Shown: piece after piece, positions 7,456 to 58,646 of the stretch | Layout: each line of letters opens with the position of its first letter | Position numbering within the stretch: position 1 is the first letter of the stretch | IMG/VR virus record: IMGVR_UViG_3300044940_000380 | Span: 1-59,474 of that record | Origin: a virus | DNA: 59,474 nucleotides | Direction: 5' to 3' (one strand) | The notes under the pieces: generated by a model | The model's database searches: none | What the model was told of the DNA's origin: nothing | Seen by the model: only the letters and a program-made list of their open reading frames with translations | Made by a program: the position numbers and the translations under genes

Positions 7456-7463
7456 TATAAATA
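7456..7463 (+). promoter_or_regulatory. T4-type late promoter box TATAAATA before holin
   Basis: Exact TATAAATA ends only 5 bases before the holin ATG at 7469. Confidence 0.55.
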
Positions 7464-7468
7464 TTCCC

Positions 7469-7771
7469 ATGAGTATTATTATTAATGATAATTGGATGCA
7501 AAAATATTGGAGGCCTTTAATGGCACTCACATATATGATAATTATCATTTTTGATTTCATATTTTTTCCAGTTTTTTGGAGTTTAATTCAAGTTTATGGT
7601 TCTGGTTCTGTTTCTGTACAATGGAGTCCTCTTACTTTATTATCTGGTGGCATTTTTCATGCCGCGCTTGGAGCTGTTTTAGGTATTGCTGCTTGGACTA
7701 GAGGTCAAGAAAAAGTGGAAAGACTTAGATCACAGCTAGAAGAAGGGAATGAAAATGTCACCCGCATCTAA
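7469..7771 (+). CDS. Holin of the GTA-type three-TM family
   Basis: A 100-residue membrane protein with hydrophobic segments at about 16-38 and 52-75. The motifs WRPLMALTYM, FDFIFFPVFWS, QWSPLTLLSGG and AALGAVLGIAAWTRGQEK are the family signature of phage holins related to the gene-transfer-agent holin (PF11351 type). It would form inner membrane lesions that release the GH19 endolysin. No good ribosome-binding site precedes ATG 7469, and a late promoter box ends 5 bases before it, so the start may be ATG 7496 or the message nearly leaderless. Overlaps the next gene. Confidence 0.85.
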   Translation: MSIIINDNWMQKYWRPLMALTYMIIIIFDFIFFPVFWSLIQVYGSGSVSVQWSPLTLLSGGIFHAALGAVLGIAAWTRGQEKVERLRSQLEEGNENVTRI

Positions 7772-33467: not shown

Positions 33468-34205
33468 ATGACAATTTTCAAAAAAATTATTAATCAAACA
33501 TTAAATAAAGTAAAAGATAATCATATTATTGTAGATGAATCGATTCGTTTTAAAATAGACTTATCTAAATTAAAAAAACTTAATGAATCATCAGTATTAA
33601 TTAATTTAAAAAATAAAAATATAGGTGATTATGGTAATCATAATCATCTTTCTGATTTATTGCACCAAGCAACTGCTAAAACTATAAATGACCAAGAAAA
33701 AAAATATATTCATCATTACACTTGCCATGATGAAGACGCCAATAAAAATTATTCTGAAAGATTAAATCATTCTTTAATAAATGGAACTGCTTTGCACGAT
33801 CATGATCAAAAAATTCATGATACAATCATGAAACACGCAAAGCCTTCCGGATATTCATTTCATTTGTTTTCTGGTGTCAAAAGAAATTTTAAAAAAATGT
33901 CAGAAGAATCTGGATCTGACACTTTTCATTTTCCGGCACATACATCAACCACGCATGACATCGAAATAGCATATGAATTTGCTTCTAAAAAAAGAGATGA
34001 TAAAAATAATATGCACCTTATTCATATTCATGTTAAACCGCAAGATAAAGTTTTACATATAAGTCGTTTTTCTGAAAATCCATATGAACACGAAACAATT
34101 TTACCTGCGGGTACTACATTAAAATATCACGGTACCACAACTGAAAAAAGAGGAAAATATTTTACTCAACACATTCATCACATGACCATTCATTCACAGA
34201 AATAA
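33468..34205 (+). CDS. ADP-ribosyltransferase-like protein 1, putative packaged effector
   Basis: A 245-residue protein. Residues 1-40 look like a propeptide: MTIFKKIINQ, a short IIVDESIRF strand, then KKLNE40-S41, an LxE protease site. The C-terminal half has an ADP-ribosyltransferase pattern: FHLFSG (131-136), HTSTTHDIEIAYEFA (158-172) in place of the STS motif with following helix, and YEHETILPAGTTLKYHG (206-222) with Glu207 and Glu209 as ExE. T4 Alt is a head-packaged enzyme of this class that modifies host RNA polymerase. The first Arg/His residue is not certain, so activity is inferred. Confidence 0.65.
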   Translation: MTIFKKIINQTLNKVKDNHIIVDESIRFKIDLSKLKKLNESSVLINLKNKNIGDYGNHNHLSDLLHQATAKTINDQEKKYIHHYTCHDEDANKNYSERLNHSLINGTALHDHDQKIHDTIMKHAKPSGYSFHLFSGVKRNFKKMSEESGSDTFHFPAHTSTTHDIEIAYEFASKKRDDKNNMHLIHIHVKPQDKVLHISRFSENPYEHETILPAGTTLKYHGTTTEKRGKYFTQHIHHMTIHSQK

Positions 34206-34237: not shown

Positions 34238-34993
34238 ATGATAAGTTTCAAAAAATTTATCAATCGAGCTTTTAATAAAACAGAAAATAAGTACATTATT
34301 TTAAATGAACCAATTCATTTTAAAAAACATCAAATGAAAATAAAAGAAATTAATGAGTCAATTTCTAATTCAAAAATTTTGAATGATTTGAAATATAAAA
34401 ATTTAGAAAAATATGGTGGTCGTGAACGTCTTTCTGAAATATTACATAATTCGACTGCTAAAAATTTAAATAAAGACGAAATAAAACATATTCATTATTT
34501 TACATCTGATATTAGTCATTTTAATAAAACTTATAGAAATGGATCTACAAGATTAAATTATTCTTTAATAAATGGAACTGCTTTGCACGATCATGATCAA
34601 AAAATTCATGATACAATCATGAAACACGCAAAGCCTTCTGGGCATTCATTTCATTTGTTTTCTGGTGACAAGAGAGATTTTAAAAAAATATCAAAACGAT
34701 CTGGATCTAACATTTTTTATTGTCCAGCTCATACATCAGCAACGCATGCTATTGAAGTAGCACATGGTTTTGCTCATGAGAAAAGAGATGAAAAAAATAA
34801 TATGCACTTCATTCATATTCATGTAAATCCACACGATAAAATTTTACATGTAAGTCATTATTCTGAAAATCCAGATGAACACGAAACAATTATACCTGCG
34901 GGTACTACATTAAAATATCACGGTACTACAGTCGAAAAAAACGAGATGAATACGTATCATATTCATCATATGACCATTCACTCACAAAAATAA
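34238..34993 (+). CDS. ADP-ribosyltransferase-like protein 2, putative packaged effector
   Basis: A 251-residue paralog of the previous gene. MISFKKFINR start, propeptide ending EINE40-S41 at exactly the same position, FHLFSG (138-143), HTSATHAIEVAHGFA (165-179) and DEHETIIPAGTTLKYHG (213-229) with Glu214/Glu216. A 77-base block (34562-34638) is identical to 33771-33847 in the paralog, covering SLINGTALHDHDQKIHDTIM. The rest has diverged, which points to gene conversion or strong constraint. Thirty-two bases separate the two genes. Confidence 0.65.
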   Translation: MISFKKFINRAFNKTENKYIILNEPIHFKKHQMKIKEINESISNSKILNDLKYKNLEKYGGRERLSEILHNSTAKNLNKDEIKHIHYFTSDISHFNKTYRNGSTRLNYSLINGTALHDHDQKIHDTIMKHAKPSGHSFHLFSGDKRDFKKISKRSGSNIFYCPAHTSATHAIEVAHGFAHEKRDEKNNMHFIHIHVNPHDKILHVSHYSENPDEHETIIPAGTTLKYHGTTVEKNEMNTYHIHHMTIHSQK

Positions 34994-35081: not shown

Positions 35082-35475
35082 ATGATAAGCTTTAAAAAAT
35101 TTATTAATCAAGCTTTTAATAAAGTAAAAGATAATTATATTATTGTAGATGAACCAATTCATTTTAAAATGAACCGGATGCCATATGAAATAACAGATGA
35201 CGATTATGTGATTCTAGATGAACCAATTCATTTTAAAATGAACCAGATGCCATATGAAATAACAGATGACGGCTCTGTGATTGTAGATGAACCCGTTCAT
35301 TTTAGAATGAAATAGATACCATATGAATAAACTTAATGAGTCAAAGACATCAATATTAAATAAATTGTCATGTGATAATGTAAATGATTTTAAAAAAGAT
35401 TCGATCCTTTTTTCTGAATTACTTCATGATATGACAGTTAGAGATATAACAGAGGATGAAAGAGAAGATATTTAA
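35082..35475 (+). pseudogene. Third ADP-ribosyltransferase-like copy, decayed
   Basis: Starts MISFKKFINQAFNKVKDNY like the two intact copies. The propeptide segment is then expanded into three 69-base repeats (IVDEPIHFKMNRMPYEITDD type). A TAG at 35313 ends the first frame (77 residues). In another frame, ATG 35323-TAA 35475 encodes NKLNESKTSILNKL then LFSELLHDMT, matching residues 36-80 of the intact copies. The catalytic half is gone. Confidence 0.8.
35111..35317 (+). repeat. Three tandem 69-base repeats
   Basis: Three 23-codon units containing GATGAACCAATTCATTTTA within the decayed third ADP-ribosyltransferase-like gene. Confidence 0.8.
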
Positions 35476-36808: not shown

Positions 36809-37040
36809 TGATAAATGCACGTGGTGCAAAAAGTCTAAATCAATTGCTGAACAATATAATTTAAAATATGAATATTTGAATATCGACAATAAATCCGTTT
36901 TAGAAGATTTAAGAAAACGTCTTCCAGAAGTTAAAACAATTCCACAGATTTGGTGGTCTGATCGTTATATCGGTGGTTATCATGAATTCCTGATTGCAAT
37001 ACACAATTATATAAACGAATCTAAAGAACAAAAAATTTAA
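36789..37040 (+). CDS. Glutaredoxin
   Basis: An 83-residue thiol-disulfide oxidoreductase. Start ATG 36789 gives MITIYGNDKCTWCKKS with active site CTWC at 10-13. The cis-Pro segment TIPQIWW (about 54-60) and GGYHEF (67-72) complete the glutathione site. In T4 the NrdC redoxin feeds electrons to ribonucleotide reductase; the class II reductase here also needs a C-terminal Cys pair to be re-reduced, so this is a likely partner. Confidence 0.9.
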   Translation: MITIYGNDKCTWCKKSKSIAEQYNLKYEYLNIDNKSVLEDLRKRLPEVKTIPQIWWSDRYIGGYHEFLIAIHNYINESKEQKI

Positions 37041-37061
37041 ATCAACACTTAATTATAAATT

Positions 37062-37379
37062 ATGAGATCTTCTATGAAAAAGAAAAAAAGAAAATCACTT
37101 GTGGAAGCAGAACTTTCGATGAAAAAATTTTTAGAGCGTATTGGATATACTGGAAATTTTAAAGGTCAATCTGTAAACGAAATACCAGATTATCGTATAA
37201 AATCAGATCTTCCTTCCACTTCAAACGTAATTCCAGGTAAAACACCAAAGAAAACACCAAATATATATACAGGCAATAAAATTATTGGAATTGCTGTTAC
37301 ACACAAATCTAATCTTGTACCAATCAGTAAAAATAATAAACAAGCAGCAATAGATATTGCACAGATGCGAAGAAGCTAA
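37062..37379 (+). CDS. Conserved phage protein of the NEIPDYR type
   Basis: A 105-residue protein, basic N-terminus, then NEIPDYRIKSDLPSTSNVIP (44-63), YTGNKIIGIAVTHKSNLVP and DIAQMRRS at the end. I recognise this as a frequent uncharacterised protein of T4-like and related phages. Probably virion- or DNA-associated by its basic character. A terminator follows. Confidence 0.7.
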   Translation: MRSSMKKKKRKSLVEAELSMKKFLERIGYTGNFKGQSVNEIPDYRIKSDLPSTSNVIPGKTPKKTPNIYTGNKIIGIAVTHKSNLVPISKNNKQAAIDIAQMRRS

Positions 37380-37401
37380 AAACTAATATAAAAAATATAT
37401 G

Positions 37402-37427
37402 TGAGTTTTATAAAAACTCATTTTTTG
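37402..37427 (+). terminator. Intrinsic terminator
   Basis: TGAGTTTT/AAAACTCA (37402-37409 with 37413-37420), 3-base loop, T-run. Confidence 0.85.
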
Positions 37428-37474
37428 TATTAAAAAATATTTATTTAAAAATTATCAAATCTTTTTCTTTTGAT

Positions 37475-37504
37475 AAATACCTCTATAATAATATAGAGGT
37501 ATTT
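37475..37504 (+). promoter_or_regulatory. Perfect 13-bp hairpin that hides a ribosome-binding site
   Basis: AAATACCTCTATA (37475-37487) pairs without mismatch with 37492-37504 around AATA. The 3' arm contains the GAGGT ribosome-binding site (37496-37500) and ends one base before the ATG at 37506. Confidence 0.85.
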
Positions 37505-37505
37505 T

Positions 37506-38060
37506 ATGTCAATTATAGCAGGAATTGATTACAGTTTAACCAGCCCAGCAATATGTGTACACAAAGGATCTGAATGGTCTATAGATAATTGCACCTTTTA
37601 TTACATGTCACATAAAAAACAATGGATTTCTGTAACTGGGCAATTTATCGGTGAAATATACGAAAAATTTGATTGTGATGCACATCGATATGATAATATA
37701 TCAAAGTGGTCATCAAAAATATTAAAAGAAAATAAAGTAGAAAAATGCTTTATTGAAGGATATTCCTATAATTCAATAGGAAGAGTTTTTCAAATAGCAG
37801 AAAATGGTGGTCTTCTTAAATACAAATTATGGAAAGAAAATATTCCATTTCAAGTTTTTGCTCCCTCCGAAATTAAGAAATTTGCTTCTGGTAAAGGTAA
37901 TGCAAATAAAGAAAAAATGTATAAATCATTCATAAATGAAACTAATATTGACATTCGTAAAAAACTTGATATAATTAATAAAAATATATGGAATCCTATA
38001 TCAGATATTGTAGATTCTTATTATATAGCAAAATTTGGATTTATAAAAAAAAGAAATTGA
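37506..38060 (+). CDS. RuvC-like Holliday junction resolvase-fold protein
   Basis: A 184-residue RNase H-fold protein. AGIDYSLTSPAIC with Asp8, CFIEGYSY with Glu84 and ISDIVDSYYIAK with Asp167/Asp170 give the RuvC-type acidic set; the APSEIKKFASGKGNANKEKM-like helix (119-138) is also typical. It could resolve recombination junctions before packaging, the task of gp49 in T4. Its ribosome-binding site lies in a strong hairpin, so translation is likely controlled. Confidence 0.82.
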   Translation: MSIIAGIDYSLTSPAICVHKGSEWSIDNCTFYYMSHKKQWISVTGQFIGEIYEKFDCDAHRYDNISKWSSKILKENKVEKCFIEGYSYNSIGRVFQIAENGGLLKYKLWKENIPFQVFAPSEIKKFASGKGNANKEKMYKSFINETNIDIRKKLDIINKNIWNPISDIVDSYYIAKFGFIKKRN

Positions 38061-38085
38061 CACTTTTAAATGTTGAATATATAAT
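38057..38085 (+). promoter_or_regulatory. Consensus promoter TTGACA-17-TATAAT
   Basis: TTGACA 38057-38062 and TATAAT 38080-38085 with exactly 17 bases between: a perfect sigma-70 promoter. The -35 overlaps the resolvase stop. Confidence 0.9.
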
Positions 38086-38112
38086 CATATATTATAAAAA
38101 TAAGGGAGAATT

Positions 38113-38328
38113 ATGATGTATATTAAACGAAAAAGTGTTATTACAGGAATAGAACACACTCGTAACATTCCAGTAAATCCTGATGATTATTTTGCATGGA
38201 ACGCTGGCTTAGGTAGTATTGAAGAAATAATGCCTTATCTTAATGATAATGATCGTGAATTCATTCTTTCAGGTATTACTCCAGAAGAATGGAATTCTGC
38301 ATTTGTCTATAATGAACGGGATATATGA
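38113..38328 (+). CDS. Small protein, unknown
   Basis: A 71-residue protein with GGGAGAA before two adjacent ATG codons. NPDDYFAWNAGLGSIEEIMP then LNDNDREFILSGITPEEW look like a small helical domain. Similar short proteins occur in other phages, function unknown. Six bases separate it from the kinase gene. Confidence 0.65.
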   Translation: MMYIKRKSVITGIEHTRNIPVNPDDYFAWNAGLGSIEEIMPYLNDNDREFILSGITPEEWNSAFVYNERDI

Positions 38329-39713: not shown

Positions 39714-40694
39714 ATGAGCTGTGTTTATAAAGGTTTTGTGATAGATACAGATCTATCAAGGAATGCTAAAGGTGGAACCGAAATGATGCGGCAACGTTTA
39801 ATTAATAACGTGAGCCCTAATTTGTTAAATCAATTTGCCATACATATTTCAAGACCTAGAAAATTGTATGAAGATGTTCCAAATATTCTTTGGTGTCATG
39901 ATTTAGCAGAAGATAAAGAAAACGATATATTATTCAACGGTGGTTGGAAAAAATTTGAACATTTTGTGTTTGTTTCTTATTGGCAAAGAGATCAATATAT
40001 TGAAAGATTTAAAATTCCTTATTCAAAATGTTCAGTTATTCAAAATGCTATAGAAACCGAATACGATCCAAAATCTTTAAGTCTTGAAAAAGCTCACAGT
40101 CCAATTCGTTTCATATATCATACAACTCCTCATAGAGGTCTTGCACTCGTCTATCCAATTTTTGATGCACTTTCAAAAGAATTTGACGATATTCATCTTG
40201 ATGTGTATTCTTCGTTTAAAATTTATGGATGGGAAAATAGAGATAAACCATATGAGCAGTTATTTAATAAAATAAAACAACATCCAAAAATGACCTATCA
40301 TGGCACTCAGAGTAATGATACTGTAATTGCTGCACTTAAAAAATCACATATTTTTCTTTTTCCATCAATATGGAAAGAAACTTCATGTATTTCAATGATT
40401 GAAGCAATTAGATGCGGTTGTATAGTTATACATCCAAGTTATGGTGCTCTTACTGAAACATCTTCTGGTGCTACTTTGATGTATGAGTTTACTGAAAATT
40501 TAGAAGATCATGCAAACAGAAGTTATAATGTAGCAAGAAATTTACTTCTTTCACATAGAAAAAATCCAGATATTTTTGAACATATTAGAGATCATGTAAG
40601 ATCTCAATTGCCATATCATAGTATTAGTGTATTTACAAATTCTTGGAATGATTTACTTCAAAAATTATTGACAAATCTGAATAAAAAAATATAA
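39714..40694 (+). CDS. Glycosyltransferase, GT-B fold (GT4-like)
   Basis: A 326-residue transferase. N-terminal acceptor side has AKGGTEMMRQRL (17-28) and ILWCHDLAED; the C-terminal donor side has FIYHTTPHRGL (about 131-141) and FLFPSIWKETSCISMIEAI with the E-x7-E donor-sugar motif, then GCIVIHPSYGALTE. T4-like phages use such enzymes for DNA base or virion glycosylation; the GT29-like gene at 296 is a second transferase in this window. Substrate unknown. Confidence 0.85.
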   Translation: MSCVYKGFVIDTDLSRNAKGGTEMMRQRLINNVSPNLLNQFAIHISRPRKLYEDVPNILWCHDLAEDKENDILFNGGWKKFEHFVFVSYWQRDQYIERFKIPYSKCSVIQNAIETEYDPKSLSLEKAHSPIRFIYHTTPHRGLALVYPIFDALSKEFDDIHLDVYSSFKIYGWENRDKPYEQLFNKIKQHPKMTYHGTQSNDTVIAALKKSHIFLFPSIWKETSCISMIEAIRCGCIVIHPSYGALTETSSGATLMYEFTENLEDHANRSYNVARNLLLSHRKNPDIFEHIRDHVRSQLPYHSISVFTNSWNDLLQKLLTNLNKKI

Positions 40695-40778
40695 TAAAAT
40701 GAAAGAAGAAACAATCATCTAAAATGTAGATAAATATCATAAAGTAAATTCAAGTTAAGCGCGTTGCGCGGGAGGTGT

Positions 40779-48493: not shown

Positions 48494-49024
48494 ATGACCA
48501 ACTACGCTCAGATCGAACAGCGGACCGCTTTTCTTCATACCGAATTCGGTGAAGAACTTGCTCGTCGGTGGTTCGGCGATGAATCCGTCAACGCACTTCC
48601 TCGTTACAAGCGCGGTAAACATAAGGGTAAAATCAAAGGTGCAGTCACTTGGTCAAAAGTTCTTCGTGGCGGTTGGGTTCGTGATGGCTTGTATGGTTAC
48701 GTTGAAAACCGCGTTGGTCACGTCTTTGAACGCAAGCTTCACGAGATTTATTTCAACTTTAATGGAACTCATGTGGGTCGAGTTTTGCGCGATCTTGATA
48801 AAGAACAAGAAATGAATCAGATTTCTGATACTGTTCGTATTGATATCGACAATCAAATTCGCAAAATTGATCGCTATCGTTCCAAACTTGAAACCACTAT
48901 TCTTTCCGAAAAGTTTGATGAATATGCTGAAGATTTTCGGCGAATCATTTCTGAATACAATGAAGAAATCGCTGCTCTTATCGAGCAGCTCAAAAAACTT
49001 CAAATAAATAAATTTAATGAGTAA
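48494..49024 (+). CDS. Conserved protein, unknown; GC-richer than neighbours
   Basis: A 176-residue protein. N-terminal half is compact and basic (ARRWFGDESVNALPRYKRGK, GAVTWSKVLRGGWVRDGLYG); the second half is coiled coil (IDNQIRKIDRYRSKLET and ALIEQLKKLQ). Codons in the first half are clearly G+C-richer than elsewhere, suggesting transfer or selection for high expression. Overlaps the start of the homing-endonuclease-like gene by 8 bases. Confidence 0.72.
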   Translation: MTNYAQIEQRTAFLHTEFGEELARRWFGDESVNALPRYKRGKHKGKIKGAVTWSKVLRGGWVRDGLYGYVENRVGHVFERKLHEIYFNFNGTHVGRVLRDLDKEQEMNQISDTVRIDIDNQIRKIDRYRSKLETTILSEKFDEYAEDFRRIISEYNEEIAALIEQLKKLQINKFNE

Positions 49025-50390
49025 AAAACAAAAAATACCCTCAAAAGAAGAAATATTAGAACTTTATGAAAGAGAAGGATGTACAATTTCTTCTCTTTCA
49101 AGATACTATAATAAGTCAAATCCTACAATAAGATCTTGGCTCATTCATTATGGAATACCAAGAAAATCTCAAAAACAGGCTTCTGCAGAAGCCAATAAAC
49201 TTAAAAGTAGCTCTCCAAGTAAAACTGAATTAAAAGAAGCATATTCAAAATCTTCATTAAAAGAAATTCAAAGTACTTTCAAGATAAGACAAAACAAGAC
49301 TTATAGTTTATTAAAAGAATATAATTTACCTATAAGAACACATTCTGAAGCGACATCTTTAGGTAAAAAGAAACAATATTCAGAAAAGCAATTTTCTAAA
49401 GAATTATTGGAAGAAATATATGAAAGAAATCAACCAATCGAAAAATTAGCTTTTCAACTTTCTGTATCTGTTTCTCATTTAAAAAAACTTTTTAAATCAT
49501 ATAATATTAAACCAGAAATACTTTATAGAAGCAAAAAAGAAATGGAATTATTTGATTATTGTAGAGAAAAATATAAAGAAGATGAATGGGTCTATTGTGA
49601 TAAGAGTGTAATAGCTCCATATGAACTTGATATAGTGAATAAAACAAGAAAAATTGCAATCGAATATTGCGGATTGTATTGGCATTCAGAAAATACCGGT
49701 AAAAAAGATTCAAATTATCATTTCAACAAATTTCTTATGTGCAAAAAAGCCGGTTATAAGCTGATAACTGTTTTTGAAAATGATGACATGAATAAAATCA
49801 AATCTTTACTTGATACTTTACATCAAAAAAATAAAAGAATATATGCAAGAAACACAGAAATTGTTGAAATAAATCCTTATTCAGCTCGTCGTTTTTGTGA
49901 AAAATATCACATGAATGGTTTTGTCGGTGGTAAGTATCATTATGGTCTTGTGCACAATTTAAATTTAGTTATGGTATGTTCTTTTGGTGTATCTCGTTTC
50001 AATAAAAAAATGGAATATGAGTGCACACGAATGGCATGTGCATCAGGTATTACTGTTGTTGGAGGAGCTTCTAAACTTTTCAAGCACTTCATCAAAACAG
50101 TAAAACCGTCTTCGTGTGTTACATATGCAGATCTTCGTTTTGGTGAAGGTGACGTTTATAAACATTGTGGATTTAAATTTGAACAATATACTGGAGCAAA
50201 TTATTGGTATTTTCATAAAGATAACACGTCAGTTCTTTTTTCAAGAGTAAAATTTCAAAAACACAAATTGAAAGATAAACTGCAATTTTTTGATGAAAAC
50301 TTGACAGAATATCAAAATATGTTAGCAAATGGTTGGGACAGAATATGGGACTGTGGAAATGCTAAATACATTTGGCATTCCAATGAATAG
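49017..50390 (+). CDS. Homing-endonuclease-like protein 1 (Vsr/EDxHD-type nuclease)
   Basis: A 457-residue protein. Residues 1-175 hold several helix-turn-helix modules (SSLSRYYNKSNPTIRSWLIH, EIQSTFKIRQNKTYSLLKEY, LAFQLSVSVSHLKKLFKSYN). Residues 195-260 have a PD-(D/E)XK-like Vsr-type core: YELDIVNKTRKIAIEYCGLY then WHSE and HFNKFLMCKKAGYKLITVFE. The C-terminal domain (285-450) is shared with three other genes here (RNTEIVEINPYSARRFCEKY, CSFGVSRFNKKMEYECTRMA). Free-standing phage endonucleases of this sort spread by cutting related genomes. Uses the stop of 48494 for coupling. Confidence 0.78.
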   Translation: MSKKQKIPSKEEILELYEREGCTISSLSRYYNKSNPTIRSWLIHYGIPRKSQKQASAEANKLKSSSPSKTELKEAYSKSSLKEIQSTFKIRQNKTYSLLKEYNLPIRTHSEATSLGKKKQYSEKQFSKELLEEIYERNQPIEKLAFQLSVSVSHLKKLFKSYNIKPEILYRSKKEMELFDYCREKYKEDEWVYCDKSVIAPYELDIVNKTRKIAIEYCGLYWHSENTGKKDSNYHFNKFLMCKKAGYKLITVFENDDMNKIKSLLDTLHQKNKRIYARNTEIVEINPYSARRFCEKYHMNGFVGGKYHYGLVHNLNLVMVCSFGVSRFNKKMEYECTRMACASGITVVGGASKLFKHFIKTVKPSSCVTYADLRFGEGDVYKHCGFKFEQYTGANYWYFHKDNTSVLFSRVKFQKHKLKDKLQFFDENLTEYQNMLANGWDRIWDCGNAKYIWHSNE

Positions 50391-52065
50391 AGAAGAAGTT
50401 ATTTCTTTTATATTAGAAACTATAAAGAAAAGTCCATATGGATATATGAAGATTTTAAAATCAAAACGCTCTGAAATAGAACAGCATTTTACTTTAGTCA
50501 CAGATTCATTTAAAGAAAATTTATATTTACTTGTTCATGGTATAAAGGAAATTCCTTTATGTCAAGTGTGTAAAGAAAAGAAGAAAGTCTTTTTTGATTT
50601 CAAAAAAGGTTATGGAAAAACATGTTCAAAATTATGTTCTGCAAAATTGGGCGGAGAAGCAAATAAAAGAAAATTGTCAAAAATAACACTTGAAGAAAAA
50701 AGAAAAATTGAAGAAAAAAGAATTAACACAAATCAGTTATTATATGGAGTAAATTATCCTCTTCAAAGAGAGGAATCAAAGAAAAAATTCAAACAAACTT
50801 GTAAAGAGCGATACGGTGATTCACATTTTATGAAAAATGAATATTTTTATGAACACTATAAATCAAAAATAAAAGAAAAATATGGAGTAGAATTTTACTT
50901 TCAAACTGAAGAATCTAAATCTAGAAGTTCGATATTGATTCATCAAAAACATTCAAACAACTTTTTCAAAAATTATTTCTTTCAAAGATATGGTGTAGAA
51001 AATTATTATCAAACAGAAGAAGGTTTACGAAAACAATTAAGAGAAAGAAATTGTGAATTTCTTTTTGAAACAATTGAACAATATTTAGACGGAAGGACAT
51101 ATCTTGAGATAGCAAATCAATTCAATATAACAGATCATATGATCAAAAAAATAATTTTATTTAAAGGAATTGATTATACACCAATTAAGTATGAAAGTTC
51201 TTTTGAAAGAGAAATAAAAGAATTCTTATTGAAACATATAAGCCCTCAAGATATGATATTCAATGATAGAACAATTTTAAATGGTCTTGAATTAGATGTG
51301 CTGATACCAAACAAAAATTTAGCAATAGAATGTAATGGTGTATATTATCACACAGACCAATTTAAAGAACCAGAATATCATAAACAAAAATATGAGATGT
51401 GCAGAGCTCTTAATATTCTTTTAATACAAATAGATGATATAGATTATTATAAAAATAAAGAAAAATGGCAATATTTTATACTATCTAAACTTAATAATAA
51501 TATGAAAACTGTATATGCAAGAAACTGTGAAATAAAGGAAGTTTCATCTCAAGATGCTAAAGTTTTTATAGAAAACAATCATCTTCAGGGATATGCTAAT
51601 TCAAGATTTAAATTCGGATTATATGATAATAAATCAAATGAATTAGTTGCTATATCAACTTTTGCTAAACCAAGATTTTCTCAAAAATATGATTATGAGC
51701 TTGTAAGATTCTGTTCTAAAAGAGGAATCAGAGTTTTGGGTGGTTTTTCTAAATTAATTTCACATTTTTATAAAAATGTGATGAAAAAAGACGAAACATG
51801 TGTTTCTTATGCAAATTGTTTTTGGTCAAATGGTGATGTTTATGAAAAAACTGGATTTTCTTTTGTGAGAACTACAAGTCCAAATTATGTATGGTCGGAT
51901 GGAAAGACAAAATTGAGTAAATATCAATCTCAAAAGAAGAAATTATTTGAAAAATACGGTGATATCGTAAAAACAGAAGAAGATTTTATGCGAAATGTTC
52001 TTCGAATGAATAGATATTATGATGCTGGAAATAGAATTTATGTATTAAAAAAAGGCGAGATTTAA
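50383..52065 (+). CDS. Homing-endonuclease-like protein 2
   Basis: A 560-residue relative of the other three. Start ATG 50383 overlaps the previous stop; an earlier ATG at 50329 is possible. Zinc-ribbon-like CQVCKEKKKVFFDFKKGYGK then TCSKLC (about 60-85); KYG/RYG repeat modules (NQLLYGVNYPLQ, CKERYGDSH, KIKEKYGVEFYFQ, QRYGVENYYQ) that resemble DNA-binding NUMOD-type repeats; a helix-turn-helix near 245-265; nuclease core LELDVLIPNKNLAIECNGVY then YHTD and YEMCRALNILLIQI; shared C-terminal domain. It converges on the major capsid gene. Confidence 0.78.
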   Translation: MNREEVISFILETIKKSPYGYMKILKSKRSEIEQHFTLVTDSFKENLYLLVHGIKEIPLCQVCKEKKKVFFDFKKGYGKTCSKLCSAKLGGEANKRKLSKITLEEKRKIEEKRINTNQLLYGVNYPLQREESKKKFKQTCKERYGDSHFMKNEYFYEHYKSKIKEKYGVEFYFQTEESKSRSSILIHQKHSNNFFKNYFFQRYGVENYYQTEEGLRKQLRERNCEFLFETIEQYLDGRTYLEIANQFNITDHMIKKIILFKGIDYTPIKYESSFEREIKEFLLKHISPQDMIFNDRTILNGLELDVLIPNKNLAIECNGVYYHTDQFKEPEYHKQKYEMCRALNILLIQIDDIDYYKNKEKWQYFILSKLNNNMKTVYARNCEIKEVSSQDAKVFIENNHLQGYANSRFKFGLYDNKSNELVAISTFAKPRFSQKYDYELVRFCSKRGIRVLGGFSKLISHFYKNVMKKDETCVSYANCFWSNGDVYEKTGFSFVRTTSPNYVWSDGKTKLSKYQSQKKKLFEKYGDIVKTEEDFMRNVLRMNRYYDAGNRIYVLKKGEI

Positions 52066-54517: not shown

Positions 54518-56219
54518 TTAATGAAAATTCGAGTATACAAAACAATAATTACCAGCATCTAATAATTTTTTATTATTTATAATTTGAATATTTTCTTTTA
54601 CATTTTTGAAAATATGATTAGAGTTACTATGATAAATTTTATTCATTCCAATTTCTTTAAAAACTGATCCATCAGAAAATCTTGCATCTGAATAAGCTAT
54701 TACGTTTCTTGGACTGAAATCTTCAATGAATTTTTTCCAAAGTTTTTCTGCTCCTCCTGATACATAAAAACCAAGACGAGAACATATTGTAATTATTTTC
54801 CATTTATGGATATCAGATGTATCTTGAGAAAAAGAAGCAATTTGAACAATGTTGTTTTCTGAATCTATAAGACCATAATTAACAGATCCCGGTTCACAAA
54901 ATTCTATACTATTATCATTGATAAATTTTTGAGCAGAATTAAAAGAGATTTGAATGATCCGACAATTTTCAATATTTATTCTTTTAAAAAATTTTAAAAC
55001 ATCTTTCAAAAGAAACATTATTTTCTCATACTTTTCAATCAATTCCCAATCAAAAAATTGTAATAAACGTATATTTGCTTTTTCTGCTGCAATTGCTTTT
55101 TCTCTATGTTGATCACCAACTTTATCTTCTGTATGCCAATAAGAACCATGATATTCTATACCCAAATTATAATCTGGAAGCCAAATATCTATTTCTTTTG
55201 GAAAAATTACAGAACGAGTGTTTCTTATTATTTTGATATTCGGGTCAATTTCAAGTAACATTTTACAAATGATTTCTTCACCGCTTGAAGTAGAACAAGA
55301 ATAAGATCTGTCTAATATCGAAAATCCATTCTTTTTAAATTTTCGAGCAAGTGTATTGCGATCTATTCCTAAAGATTTTGCGAGCTGATTGATTGAAAGT
55401 GAATCGTTTTTATAATAATCATTATAAAGATTTTCAACATCATAAGTAAGAATATGAAATAGATCTTCACCATAATAATTGAATTTTTTTCTCTTTGAAG
55501 ATTTTTGAGATATTAAAGAAGATTGCATAGCATTACGTACATTGTATTTTTCTTCATTTGTTTTTTCTATTTTAGAAAGAAGAATTTTTGAAGAAAATCC
55601 TCTGCCGCCATATTTAGATTTTAGTGTATTTGTTATAGATTCTATAATTTTTTGAGAGCCAAATGGATTTTCTGAACCATATTTTTCTAAACACGTCTTT
55701 TTGATTTGATCAGAATTTCTATAATTTTCATTTCCATATTTTTTTAATTTTGTTTCTTTAGCTTTACTTATATTTACAAAGAATTCATCTCCATATAAGA
55801 TCTTTTTTGTCCTTCTTGCTTTGATGACCATAGAATTGTAATCAAAGAATGTTTCTGATCCATATTTGTTCAAACAAGTTTGTTTACGTTTTTTAACAGC
55901 AGAATTCCAATCTATTTTTTCTTTTCTTTTTTTCTTGTACACATTCTTTATGAGCATAAACGCGTTTTCTTCTATTACTTATATTGAAAAAATCTAATTC
56001 ACCGCCACAAATATTACAAAAAGGTATAACGCAATTTTTGTTGATAACAATATCAACAATCAAATCGATTGGTGCTCTTTTTAAAAAAGTCTCATAAAAA
56101 AGATTTTCTACAATAGAATCTTTAGTTAAATCTCTTTTAGAATTAAGAGTATTGTTTTTAGTTAATAATTTTAATTCTTTGAATAATTCTAAAAAAGGCG
56201 TGTCACATGGTGTTATCAT
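54518..56219 (-). pseudogene. Homing-endonuclease-like protein 3, frameshifted
   Basis: Two overlapping reverse frames (56219-55893, 108 residues; 55957-54518, 479 residues) make one protein when joined. The first holds the zinc-ribbon (PFCNICGGELDFF then AHKEC). The second holds KYG modules (CLNKYGSETFF, LKKYGNENYRNS, CLEKYGSENPFGS), a helix-turn-helix, nuclease core IDIWLPDYNLGIEYHGSYWH then HREKAIAAEKANIRLLQFFD and the shared C-terminal domain. The break is in an A-rich tract near 55905-55930, where one extra base separates the frames. It may be a mutation, a recoding site or a sequencing error. Lies between gp22 and gp21. Confidence 0.8.
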
Positions 56220-56963: not shown

Positions 56964-58646
56964 TTATTTATAATAAACAAAAACTTTATTACCAGCATCA
57001 AAAATTATTCTATAACCATTAGATAACATATTTTCTTTTTCTGATAATTCAGGATTAAATCCTTCTTTAAGCAAATTTTTCAGTTTATGTTTTTGCGCAG
57101 AAATTCTTGATAATTTATCTTGTCCTTTAATATACCAGTAATTTGGAGAAGAATCATGAGAATAGTTAAATCCAAGTTTTTCATATAATTTTCCATTAAA
57201 TAATCTATTATCTGAAAAACTTATAATTGAACTAAAATTAAAGTTTTTTGTAAAATAACTGAATAATTTGGAAGCACCTCCTCTTATAGAAGAATATTTT
57301 TTGTTACAAAATCGTATCATTTCATAATCATGATTACTTTTTGATCTAGGTCTTGAAAAAGACATAATTGAAACTAATTCATCTTTATGAAATAAACCTA
57401 ATTTAATTCGAGAAGGAGCATAACCCTGCATATGATTTTCTTCACAAAAAAGTTTGTACTCTTTTAAAGAAATTTCTTTTACAAGACAATCTCTTGCATT
57501 AATTTTATGATCGTAAAAACCAAATCTAGATTTAATTAGAGAAAAAACGATATCTTCTTTTTCTTCTAATTCCCAATCAAATAATTGAATTAATTCTATG
57601 TTTGCTTTTTTAGCTAATAAGTATTTATTTTGATGTTTACTTTCTTCTATATTTGAATGCCAAAAAGATCCATGATATTCTATACCTAAATTGAATTCAG
57701 GAATGTAAAGATCTATTTCTTTTTGACCGCCTAGTAATTTTCTATCATGAGAAATGATTTTTCCATCATAAAAAGACTCTATAAATTGTTTAATGATGAG
57801 TTCGCCATTAGATACATAATATCTTCTTATTATCGGCAGATTCAAATCTATTAATTGAGATTTTACATAATTAAAAGGTAAATTATATTTCTTACATATA
57901 TAAGAAATAGTATGACCTTCTTCTACATGCTCTTTATCATAGATTTCCTTTAAAGATTTAATTGAATTCTTTTGTTCTTCCAAAAAAAGATTCCAATAAT
58001 TTTCCATTCTAGTTTTTATTGATTTTTGAATTACATTAAAATTTTTATTTGGATGATCAACACCATATTTTTGAATAAAAGTTTGTTTTCTTTTTTCTTT
58101 TACTTCAAAAGAAGAAGATACATTTTCAACACCATATTTTTCTATATTAGTTTTCTTAATTTTTTCCTTAACTTTTTCTGATTGAAATGGATTACTTACA
58201 TTATGATTTTTATTTAATGTGTTTAATCTTTTTTGTTTAATTTCATTATTTTTGAATGAATGTTCAACGCCATATTTTTTTATGCAAGTTTCCTTATACT
58301 TTTTCTTAGTAGAGTTCAATTGAGAAATATGTTCAACACCATATCTTTTTATTGTTGTGATTTTTCTCTTTTCATTTTTTTCTTTTTTTCTACAATCATA
58401 ACAAATGAATTTACGAAAATCAAGTTTCTTAGTAAGAGGAGAACTACAAATGATACAAATAGTATTTCCTGTTTGCAATAAACAATTAATTTTATCTATA
58501 AGTTGTATTTCTTCATCAATTTCAAACAAATCTTCTATTTTAGAAGCTAATTCTTTATCTATTTTTTGATGAAGATTTTTTCTGATAATTTTGTTTGAAT
58601 TAGTTAAAAGCTTACTCTTAATTTCAGCAATCACATCTTGAATCAT
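56964..58646 (-). CDS. Homing-endonuclease-like protein 4
   Basis: A 560-residue intact member. Zinc-ribbon CIICSSPLTKKLDFRKFICY then DCRKK (about 63-90); seven KYG/RYG modules (IKRYGVEHISQL, CIKKYGVEHSFKN, IEKYGVENVSSS, IQKYGVDHPNKN); a helix-turn-helix near 245; nuclease core KEIDLYIPEFNLGIEYHGSF then WHSN and LLAKKANIELIQLFDWE; shared C-terminal domain (ARDCLVKEISLKEYKLFCEE, SFSRPRSKSNHDYEMIRFC). No late box precedes it. It sits upstream of gp21. Confidence 0.8.
   Translation of the reverse strand: MIQDVIAEIKSKLLTNSNKIIRKNLHQKIDKELASKIEDLFEIDEEIQLIDKINCLLQTGNTICIICSSPLTKKLDFRKFICYDCRKKEKNEKRKITTIKRYGVEHISQLNSTKKKYKETCIKKYGVEHSFKNNEIKQKRLNTLNKNHNVSNPFQSEKVKEKIKKTNIEKYGVENVSSSFEVKEKRKQTFIQKYGVDHPNKNFNVIQKSIKTRMENYWNLFLEEQKNSIKSLKEIYDKEHVEEGHTISYICKKYNLPFNYVKSQLIDLNLPIIRRYYVSNGELIIKQFIESFYDGKIISHDRKLLGGQKEIDLYIPEFNLGIEYHGSFWHSNIEESKHQNKYLLAKKANIELIQLFDWELEEKEDIVFSLIKSRFGFYDHKINARDCLVKEISLKEYKLFCEENHMQGYAPSRIKLGLFHKDELVSIMSFSRPRSKSNHDYEMIRFCNKKYSSIRGGASKLFSYFTKNFNFSSIISFSDNRLFNGKLYEKLGFNYSHDSSPNYWYIKGQDKLSRISAQKHKLKNLLKEGFNPELSEKENMLSNGYRIIFDAGNKVFVYYK
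56965..56972 (-). promoter_or_regulatory. Late promoter box TATAAATA before gp21
   Basis: Exact TATAAATA on the reverse strand, 33 bases before the protease ATG; it overlaps the end of the neighbouring endonuclease-like gene. Confidence 0.8.

What the first reader, a model, noticed from the sequence alone, without database searches (positions are those of the whole stretch)
37475..37508. Ribosome-binding site of the RuvC-like gene buried in a perfect 13-bp hairpin
The 3' arm of the hairpin contains the GAGGT site and ends one base before the ATG. T4 uses similar hairpins to block translation of late genes from early transcripts (for example the lysozyme gene e), with a late promoter starting inside the hairpin; a GATAAATA late-like box overlaps the 5' arm at 37472-37479, so late transcripts would lack the arm.
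Basis: partly seen in the sequence, partly recalled or inferred. Interest (0 to 1): 0.72.

Follow-up and report, generated by a model that had tools for sequence, protein, structure and literature searches.

The report
Late-only translation switch on phage resolvase
A T4-type phage hides the start signal of its DNA-junction-cutting enzyme in an RNA hairpin that messages made late in infection should lack, and the same arrangement recurs on the unrelated junction-cutting enzyme of T4 and its relatives.

Summary
[quoted passage not shown] GATAAATA (37472-37479) overlaps its 5' arm. With T4's -13/-6 spacing, late transcripts would start at 37485 and lack most of that arm. The window is a T4-type phage: TATAAATA precedes its major head protein, scaffold and head-protease genes.

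Of 137 distinct ruvC start regions, 64 pair a TAAATA box with such a hairpin, against 7 of 625 other gene starts in the same loci. In the window's own clade it is 32 of 34. The arms covary: swapping arms between relatives weakens pairing (0 of 5000 permutations reach the native value). Ackermannviridae (Vi01, MAM1) carry it too.

T4 gene 49 (endonuclease VII), a non-homologous resolvase also downstream of nrdC, has the same layout, as do 31 of 31 distinct gene-49 homologue starts. One ruvC subgroup places the box exactly 13 nt before AUG, predicting leaderless late mRNA.

The mechanism is a known T4 kind (e, soc, 49, I-TevI); its use on RuvC-type resolvases appears unreported in the searches made here. 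No transcript has been mapped.

The parts
37472..37479 (+). late-promoter box GATAAATA (NATAAATA, predicted -13 to -6)
   Evidence: sequence; same box at the same place in relatives; T4 numbering from PMC1524935
37475..37487 (+). 5' arm of the hairpin (AAATACCTCTATA)
   Evidence: covariation
37485..37485 (+). predicted late transcription start (+1), inside the 5' arm
   Evidence: inference from box position and T4 -13/-6 spacing; not mapped
37488..37491 (+). loop ATAA
37492..37504 (+). 3' arm of the hairpin (TATAGAGGTATTT)
37496..37499 (+). Shine-Dalgarno GAGG, 6 nt before ATG; P(unpaired) 0 in long transcripts, 0.60-0.77 for a start at 37485
37506..38060 (+). RuvC-like Holliday junction resolvase, 184 aa
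   Evidence: PHROG 159 E 3.9e-33; PF02075 27 bits, cut-off 22.2; D8, E84, D167, D170 invariant in 13 relatives
37401..37426 (+). terminator-like hairpin plus T run between the upstream ORF and the switch
   Evidence: sequence, -7.0 kcal/mol; not listed by the consensus terminator scan
37062..37379 (+). upstream co-directional ORF (105 aa, unknown function); a similar C-terminus abuts ruvC in L006, L129, L159
36774..37040 (+). glutaredoxin (NrdC-like) ORF; T4 gene 49 likewise lies downstream of nrdC
   Evidence: PF00462; T4 map
38057..38085 (+). perfect sigma-70-type promoter-like site (TTGACA-17-TATAAT) just after ruvC, before the next gene
   Evidence: consensus match only

Best explanation
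It is a late-only translation switch of the kind known for T4 genes e, soc, 49 and I-TevI, placed on a RuvC-type Holliday-junction resolvase. RNA that reads into ruvC from upstream (early and middle genes) contains both arms, folds, and hides the GAGG site, so no resolvase is made. Late RNA polymerase (gp55/gp33-type) starts at about 37485, within the 5' arm, so late mRNA cannot form the hairpin and is translated. The likely purpose is to keep a junction-cutting nuclease away from replicating, recombining DNA until branched DNA must be resolved for packaging. Shown: the sequence elements, their conservation and covariation, and the computed accessibility. Inferred: the late start, read-through in this phage, the translational effect and the purpose.
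For: Perfect hairpin over the SD. TATAAATA precedes the major head protein, scaffold and head protease genes, and GATAAATA a baseplate-hub gene, in the same window. SD P(unpaired) is 0 in long RNAs and 0.60-0.77 for a start at 37485. 64 of 137 distinct ruvC start regions carry box plus SD hairpin with the 5' arm at least partly before the predicted start, against 7 of 625 other ORF starts in the same loci. Among those with a box it is 64 of 70 against 7 of 56, Fisher 1e-20. Mean energy is -12.2 for the full form and -1.4 for the truncated form. Arm swap: own -11.8 against swapped -7.2 kcal/mol, 0 of 5000 permutations. CG, TA, AT and GC pairs all occur at stem positions 6, 9, 11 and 13 past the box. 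32 of 34 representatives in the window's clade carry it, support 100/97. 59 of those 64 have a co-directional ORF ending within 60 nt upstream. T4 genes 49 and e have the same layout, and 31 of 31 distinct gene-49 homologue starts pass the same test against 0 of 114 controls. A gp55 homologue (1e-61) and a gp33 homologue (2e-12) are present in the 218-kb relative. PMC3014915 (passages) describes the mechanism for T4 genes e, soc, 49 and I-TevI.
Against: No transcript ends or expression data exist. In this phage a terminator-like hairpin (37401-37426) would reduce read-through from upstream. 73 of 137 ruvC start regions lack the combination, among them Pootjesviridae, Cr30, pf16 and the pelagiphage Mosig. 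A weak hairpin that partly pairs the AUG remains in the late form. Box frequency in the window is at chance level. No late sigma factor lies in this 59-kb fragment.
Confidence: 0.85

Rival explanations
1. The hairpin is mainly an intrinsic terminator or attenuator that stops early transcription before ruvC.
For: The stem is followed by T in the window (TATTTT), and a terminator-like hairpin lies just upstream, so transcription control operates here.
Against: A separate terminator-like element already exists at 37401-37426. In many relatives the 3' arm runs into the start codon without a T tract (for example L140, L019, L115), and in 36 representatives the gap between 3' arm and start codon is 0-9 nt, 0-4 in 32 of them. 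The conserved features are SD cover and late-box overlap.
Confidence: 0.05
2. The inverted repeat is a DNA or RNA operator bound by a protein (autoregulation, as for the I-TevI operator or gp43).
For: I-TevI binds an operator over its late promoter (PMC2988022, passages), and RuvC-type enzymes bind branched or cruciform DNA (recalled).
Against: Stem sequence is free to change as long as it pairs and loop length ranges from 3 to 13. No shared sequence remains outside the box. Unrelated enzymes (gp49, RuvC) carry the same layout.
Confidence: 0.05
3. Chance: an A/T-rich late box, a C-rich stretch and an SD happen to be complementary.
For: The box itself (TAAATA) pairs with T-rich sequence before ATG in an A/T-rich genome.
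Against: Only 7 of 56 other box-bearing starts, and 7 of 625 starts in all, pass the same test; arm-swap permutation 0 of 5000.
Confidence: 0.02

Closest known systems
T4 gene 49 (endonuclease VII) leader
   Same: NATAAATA box in the 5' arm, SD in the 3' arm, next to the start codon; Holliday-junction resolvase; downstream of nrdC. Named as an inhibitory start-region structure in PMC3014915 (passages).
   Different: The enzyme is endonuclease VII (PF02945), not RuvC. PF02945 was found in T4 only, not in the window, G002, G003, Vi01, DLP6 or VAP7.
T4 gene e (lysozyme) leader
   Same: TATAAATACCT...AGGAGGTATT-ATG is nearly the window's layout. Long RNAs are about 100-fold less translated and late RNAs lack the 5' arm (PMC3014915, passages).
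   Different: Unrelated gene; T4 e has two late promoters and mapped RNA ends.
I-TevI, I-TevII, I-TevIII, segB and mobE leaders
   Same: Hairpin over the RBS with a late promoter placed so that late RNA lacks it (PMC2988022, passages).
   Different: Homing endonucleases, not a phage DNA-metabolism gene.

Membership tests
T4-type late-gene occlusion hairpin (e, soc, 49, I-TevI) | SD/start region sequestered in RNA that starts upstream | tested here: met
   P(unpaired) of GAGG is 0.0 for four upstream starts
T4-type late-gene occlusion hairpin (e, soc, 49, I-TevI) | late promoter box positioned so that late RNA lacks the 5' arm | tested here: met
   GATAAATA at 37472-37479 gives +1 at 37485 by T4 spacing; 75% of the counted pairs lost. 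Sequence only; no 5' end mapped
T4-type late-gene occlusion hairpin (e, soc, 49, I-TevI) | gene lies on longer upstream-initiated transcripts | tested here: inconclusive
   Upstream co-directional ORF present, but gap 126 nt with a terminator-like hairpin; 59 of 64 relatives abut within 60 nt
T4-type late-gene occlusion hairpin (e, soc, 49, I-TevI) | gp55/gp33 late transcription apparatus in the phage | tested here: inconclusive
   None in the 59-kb fragment; both found in G002, a 218-kb relative
T4-type late-gene occlusion hairpin (e, soc, 49, I-TevI) | lower translation from the long form | not testable with these tools
   needs a reporter
RuvC-type Holliday junction resolvase | RuvC fold family with conserved acidic catalytic residues | tested here: met
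   PF02075 over cut-off, PHROG 159; D8, E84, D167, D170 invariant among 13 aligned
RuvC-type Holliday junction resolvase | cleaves four-way junctions | not testable with these tools
   no assay; no PDB sequence match at E 0.1

The most novel reading that the evidence does not exclude
The switch belongs to the function, not to the gene family. Phages with T4-type late transcription keep their Holliday-junction resolvase untranslated until late, whichever non-homologous enzyme they use (endonuclease VII or RuvC), and they do it in two ways: a late start inside an SD-hiding hairpin, or a late start exactly on the AUG (box 13 nt upstream), giving leaderless late mRNA from an AUG that is otherwise buried in a hairpin.
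Probability: 0.45. Interest if true: 0.68.

Novelty: new member of a known kind. Interest (0 to 1): 0.55.

Why it matters
Two unrelated resolvases, at a similar place on the map (downstream of nrdC), carry the same late-only switch. This suggests that early resolvase is harmful to recombination-dependent phage replication, and makes that testable by removing one arm. It also gives a sequence handle for calling late promoters and expression timing in uncultured T4-type phages, and points to possible leaderless late mRNAs.

Tried and rejected
Box enrichment as evidence: rejected, TATAAATA and ATAAATAC are at chance frequency in the window.

Repeated cassette: no other copy of the hairpin core in the window. 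Rfam: no match at E up to 1 in 37000-38200. PDB sequence search: no match.

Terminator, protein operator and chance were considered as rivals and judged unlikely (see rivals).

Absence of endonuclease VII: PF02945 gave no match in the window, G002 or G003, whose controls were silent too; the T4 control rang. The window and G003 are fragments, so absence there is weak.

Losses and limits of the counts: of 263 sequences examined for a ruvC start (262 loci and the window), 187 were read and 43 more by coordinates; 33 were never scored. Duplicates of the start region were merged to 137. Start codons were chosen by rule and some may be wrong. The pass criterion was set after seeing the first relatives. 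Rows are related, so Fisher values overstate independence; at 80% protein identity 36 of 88 clusters have at least one positive. The identities of the 7 passing controls were not examined. The two exceptions in the window's clade are L145 (no pairs before the predicted start) and L179 (-5.0 kcal/mol, 10 pairs). In the arm-swap, 5 of 36 own pairings did not beat the median swap. The first pair-type table had indices reversed and was redone.

The spike of NATAAATA at 13 nt before ATG (13 cases against 0-3 for four scrambled boxes) is small and several cases are ruvC itself. In a wider scan only the closest subgroup kept it: 8 of 50 distinct starts at 13 nt, 35 of 50 with no box.

Full report
What is there. 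The hairpin, its coordinates, the GAGG site and the GATAAATA box are as reported. The gene behind it is a RuvC-like resolvase whose acidic residues D8, E84, D167 and D170 are invariant among 13 relatives. The window is a T4-type phage fragment with gp21-, gp22- and gp23-like head genes on the minus strand and several HNH homing endonucleases among them. TATAAATA lies upstream of the major head protein, scaffold and head-protease genes, and GATAAATA upstream of a baseplate-hub/tail-lysozyme gene. This supports NATAAATA as this phage's late box, although its overall frequency is only at chance level.

How it should work. T4's late box TATAAATA occupies -13 to -6, and the base at -13 is poorly conserved in relatives (PMC1524935, passages; PMC2988020, passages). 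Applied here, +1 is 37485, ten bases into the 13-base 5' arm. GAGG has an unpaired probability of 0.0 in RNAs that start at 37062, 37300, 37431 or 37465, and of 0.60-0.77 in one that starts at 37485; AUG stays partly paired to the coding region in both forms.

Conservation. The first scan for RuvC relatives showed the box and an SD hairpin in the nearest relatives with different stem letters. After two more scans and 22 annotated regions of named phages, 137 distinct ruvC start regions were classified. 87 have an SD hairpin, and 64 of those also have a TAAATA box with the 5' arm at least partly upstream of the predicted start. Of 625 other ORF starts in the same loci, 156 have an SD hairpin by the same test, 56 have a box, and 7 have the combination. 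Mean energies are -12.2 for the full leaders and -1.4 kcal/mol for the truncated ones. 5' and 3' arms belong together: own pairing averages -11.8 and swapped pairing -7.2 kcal/mol over 36 representatives, and 0 of 5000 permutations reach the native sum. Past the box, three or more Watson-Crick pair types occur at each stem position from 6 to 13. These pairs come from each sequence's own fold, so the swap test is the stronger evidence.

Distribution. On a tree of 100 representatives the trait fills the window's clade (32 of 34, support 100/97) and part of an Ackermannviridae-containing clade (7 of 12). One or two origins cannot be told apart. Examples from named phages are Vi01, May, Gloob, MAM1 and phiEa2809, with VAP7 in a variant layout. 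DLP6, phiA8-29, TSW001, PhiW-14 and GR28A have start-region hairpins without a clear box. Pootjesviridae (I34, phiM9, P10VF), Cr30, pf16, Mosig, K471/D504 and Cygsa01 do not show the layout. In 59 of the 64 positives a co-directional ORF ends within 60 nt of ruvC, often with its stop codon in the late box, so read-through RNA is expected. The window is an exception, with 126 nt and a terminator-like hairpin in between.

The same switch on a different resolvase. T4 gene 49 encodes endonuclease VII, which is not a RuvC. Its leader (aataaataccctta...taagggtttatt-ATG) has the same layout, as does T4 e. Gene 49 lies downstream of nrdC; the window's ruvC lies downstream of a glutaredoxin ORF, and G002 has a glutaredoxin ORF upstream of ruvC too. 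A scan with gp49 gave 38 loci with 31 distinct start regions; 31 of 31 pass the same test, against 0 of 114 other ORF starts in those loci. The endonuclease VII domain was found in T4 but not in the window, G002, G003, Vi01, DLP6 or VAP7. PMC7824862 (passages) notes the nearly complementary distribution of RuvC and endonuclease VII in jumbo phages. The start-region structure of gene 49 is named in PMC3014915 (passages); the primary paper (Barth et al. 1988) was seen only as a reference entry and is not held.

A second design. In 12 of the ruvC start regions that have a box, it begins 12 or 13 nt before the start codon (10 at exactly 13), and no box begins at 14 to 18. By T4 spacing the late start would then be the first base of AUG, a leaderless mRNA. 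In the MFHTIVGID subgroup the flanks of the box pair with each other and include the AUG, and CCTAT/ATAGG is replaced by CCCAT/ATGGG in L256. This is suggestive only.

What is known. The mechanism is established for T4 e, soc, 49 and I-TevI (PMC3014915) and for further homing endonucleases (PMC2988022), read here as passages. I found no report of it for RuvC-type genes in the searches, which cover only the open-licence PMC library. The finding is therefore a new member of a known kind. Its wider interest is the recurrence of the switch on two unrelated resolvases.

Noticed in passing
window 7456-7771: Holin-like gene (PF11351) whose TATAAATA box begins exactly 13 nt before ATG, predicting a leaderless late mRNA; 13 such boxes were seen in 1.68 Mb of loci against 0-3 for four scrambled boxes.
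   Followed up: partly
window 33468-34205 and 34238-34993 (leader also at 35082-35315): Tandem ADP-ribosyltransferase-like ORFs (PF03496 below cut-off) sharing an M..FKK.IN N-terminus; similar N-termini (MQSFKNFL, MKRFSKFI) sit on late-box genes of G002 and G003, perhaps a capsid-targeting leader.
   Followed up: no
window 49017-52065, 54518-55957, 56964-58646: Four HNH homing-endonuclease-like ORFs around and between the gp21/gp22/gp23-like head genes.
   Followed up: no
window 37948-37975, 38057-38085, 40668-40695: Three perfect 12-of-12 sigma-70-type promoter-like sites in the region of DNA-metabolism genes.
   Followed up: no
L096 653-1145 (G002 60653-61145): Another gene (154 aa, no Pfam match) with tataaatacctc...gaggagatttata directly before ATG, the same box-hairpin-SD layout.
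   Followed up: partly
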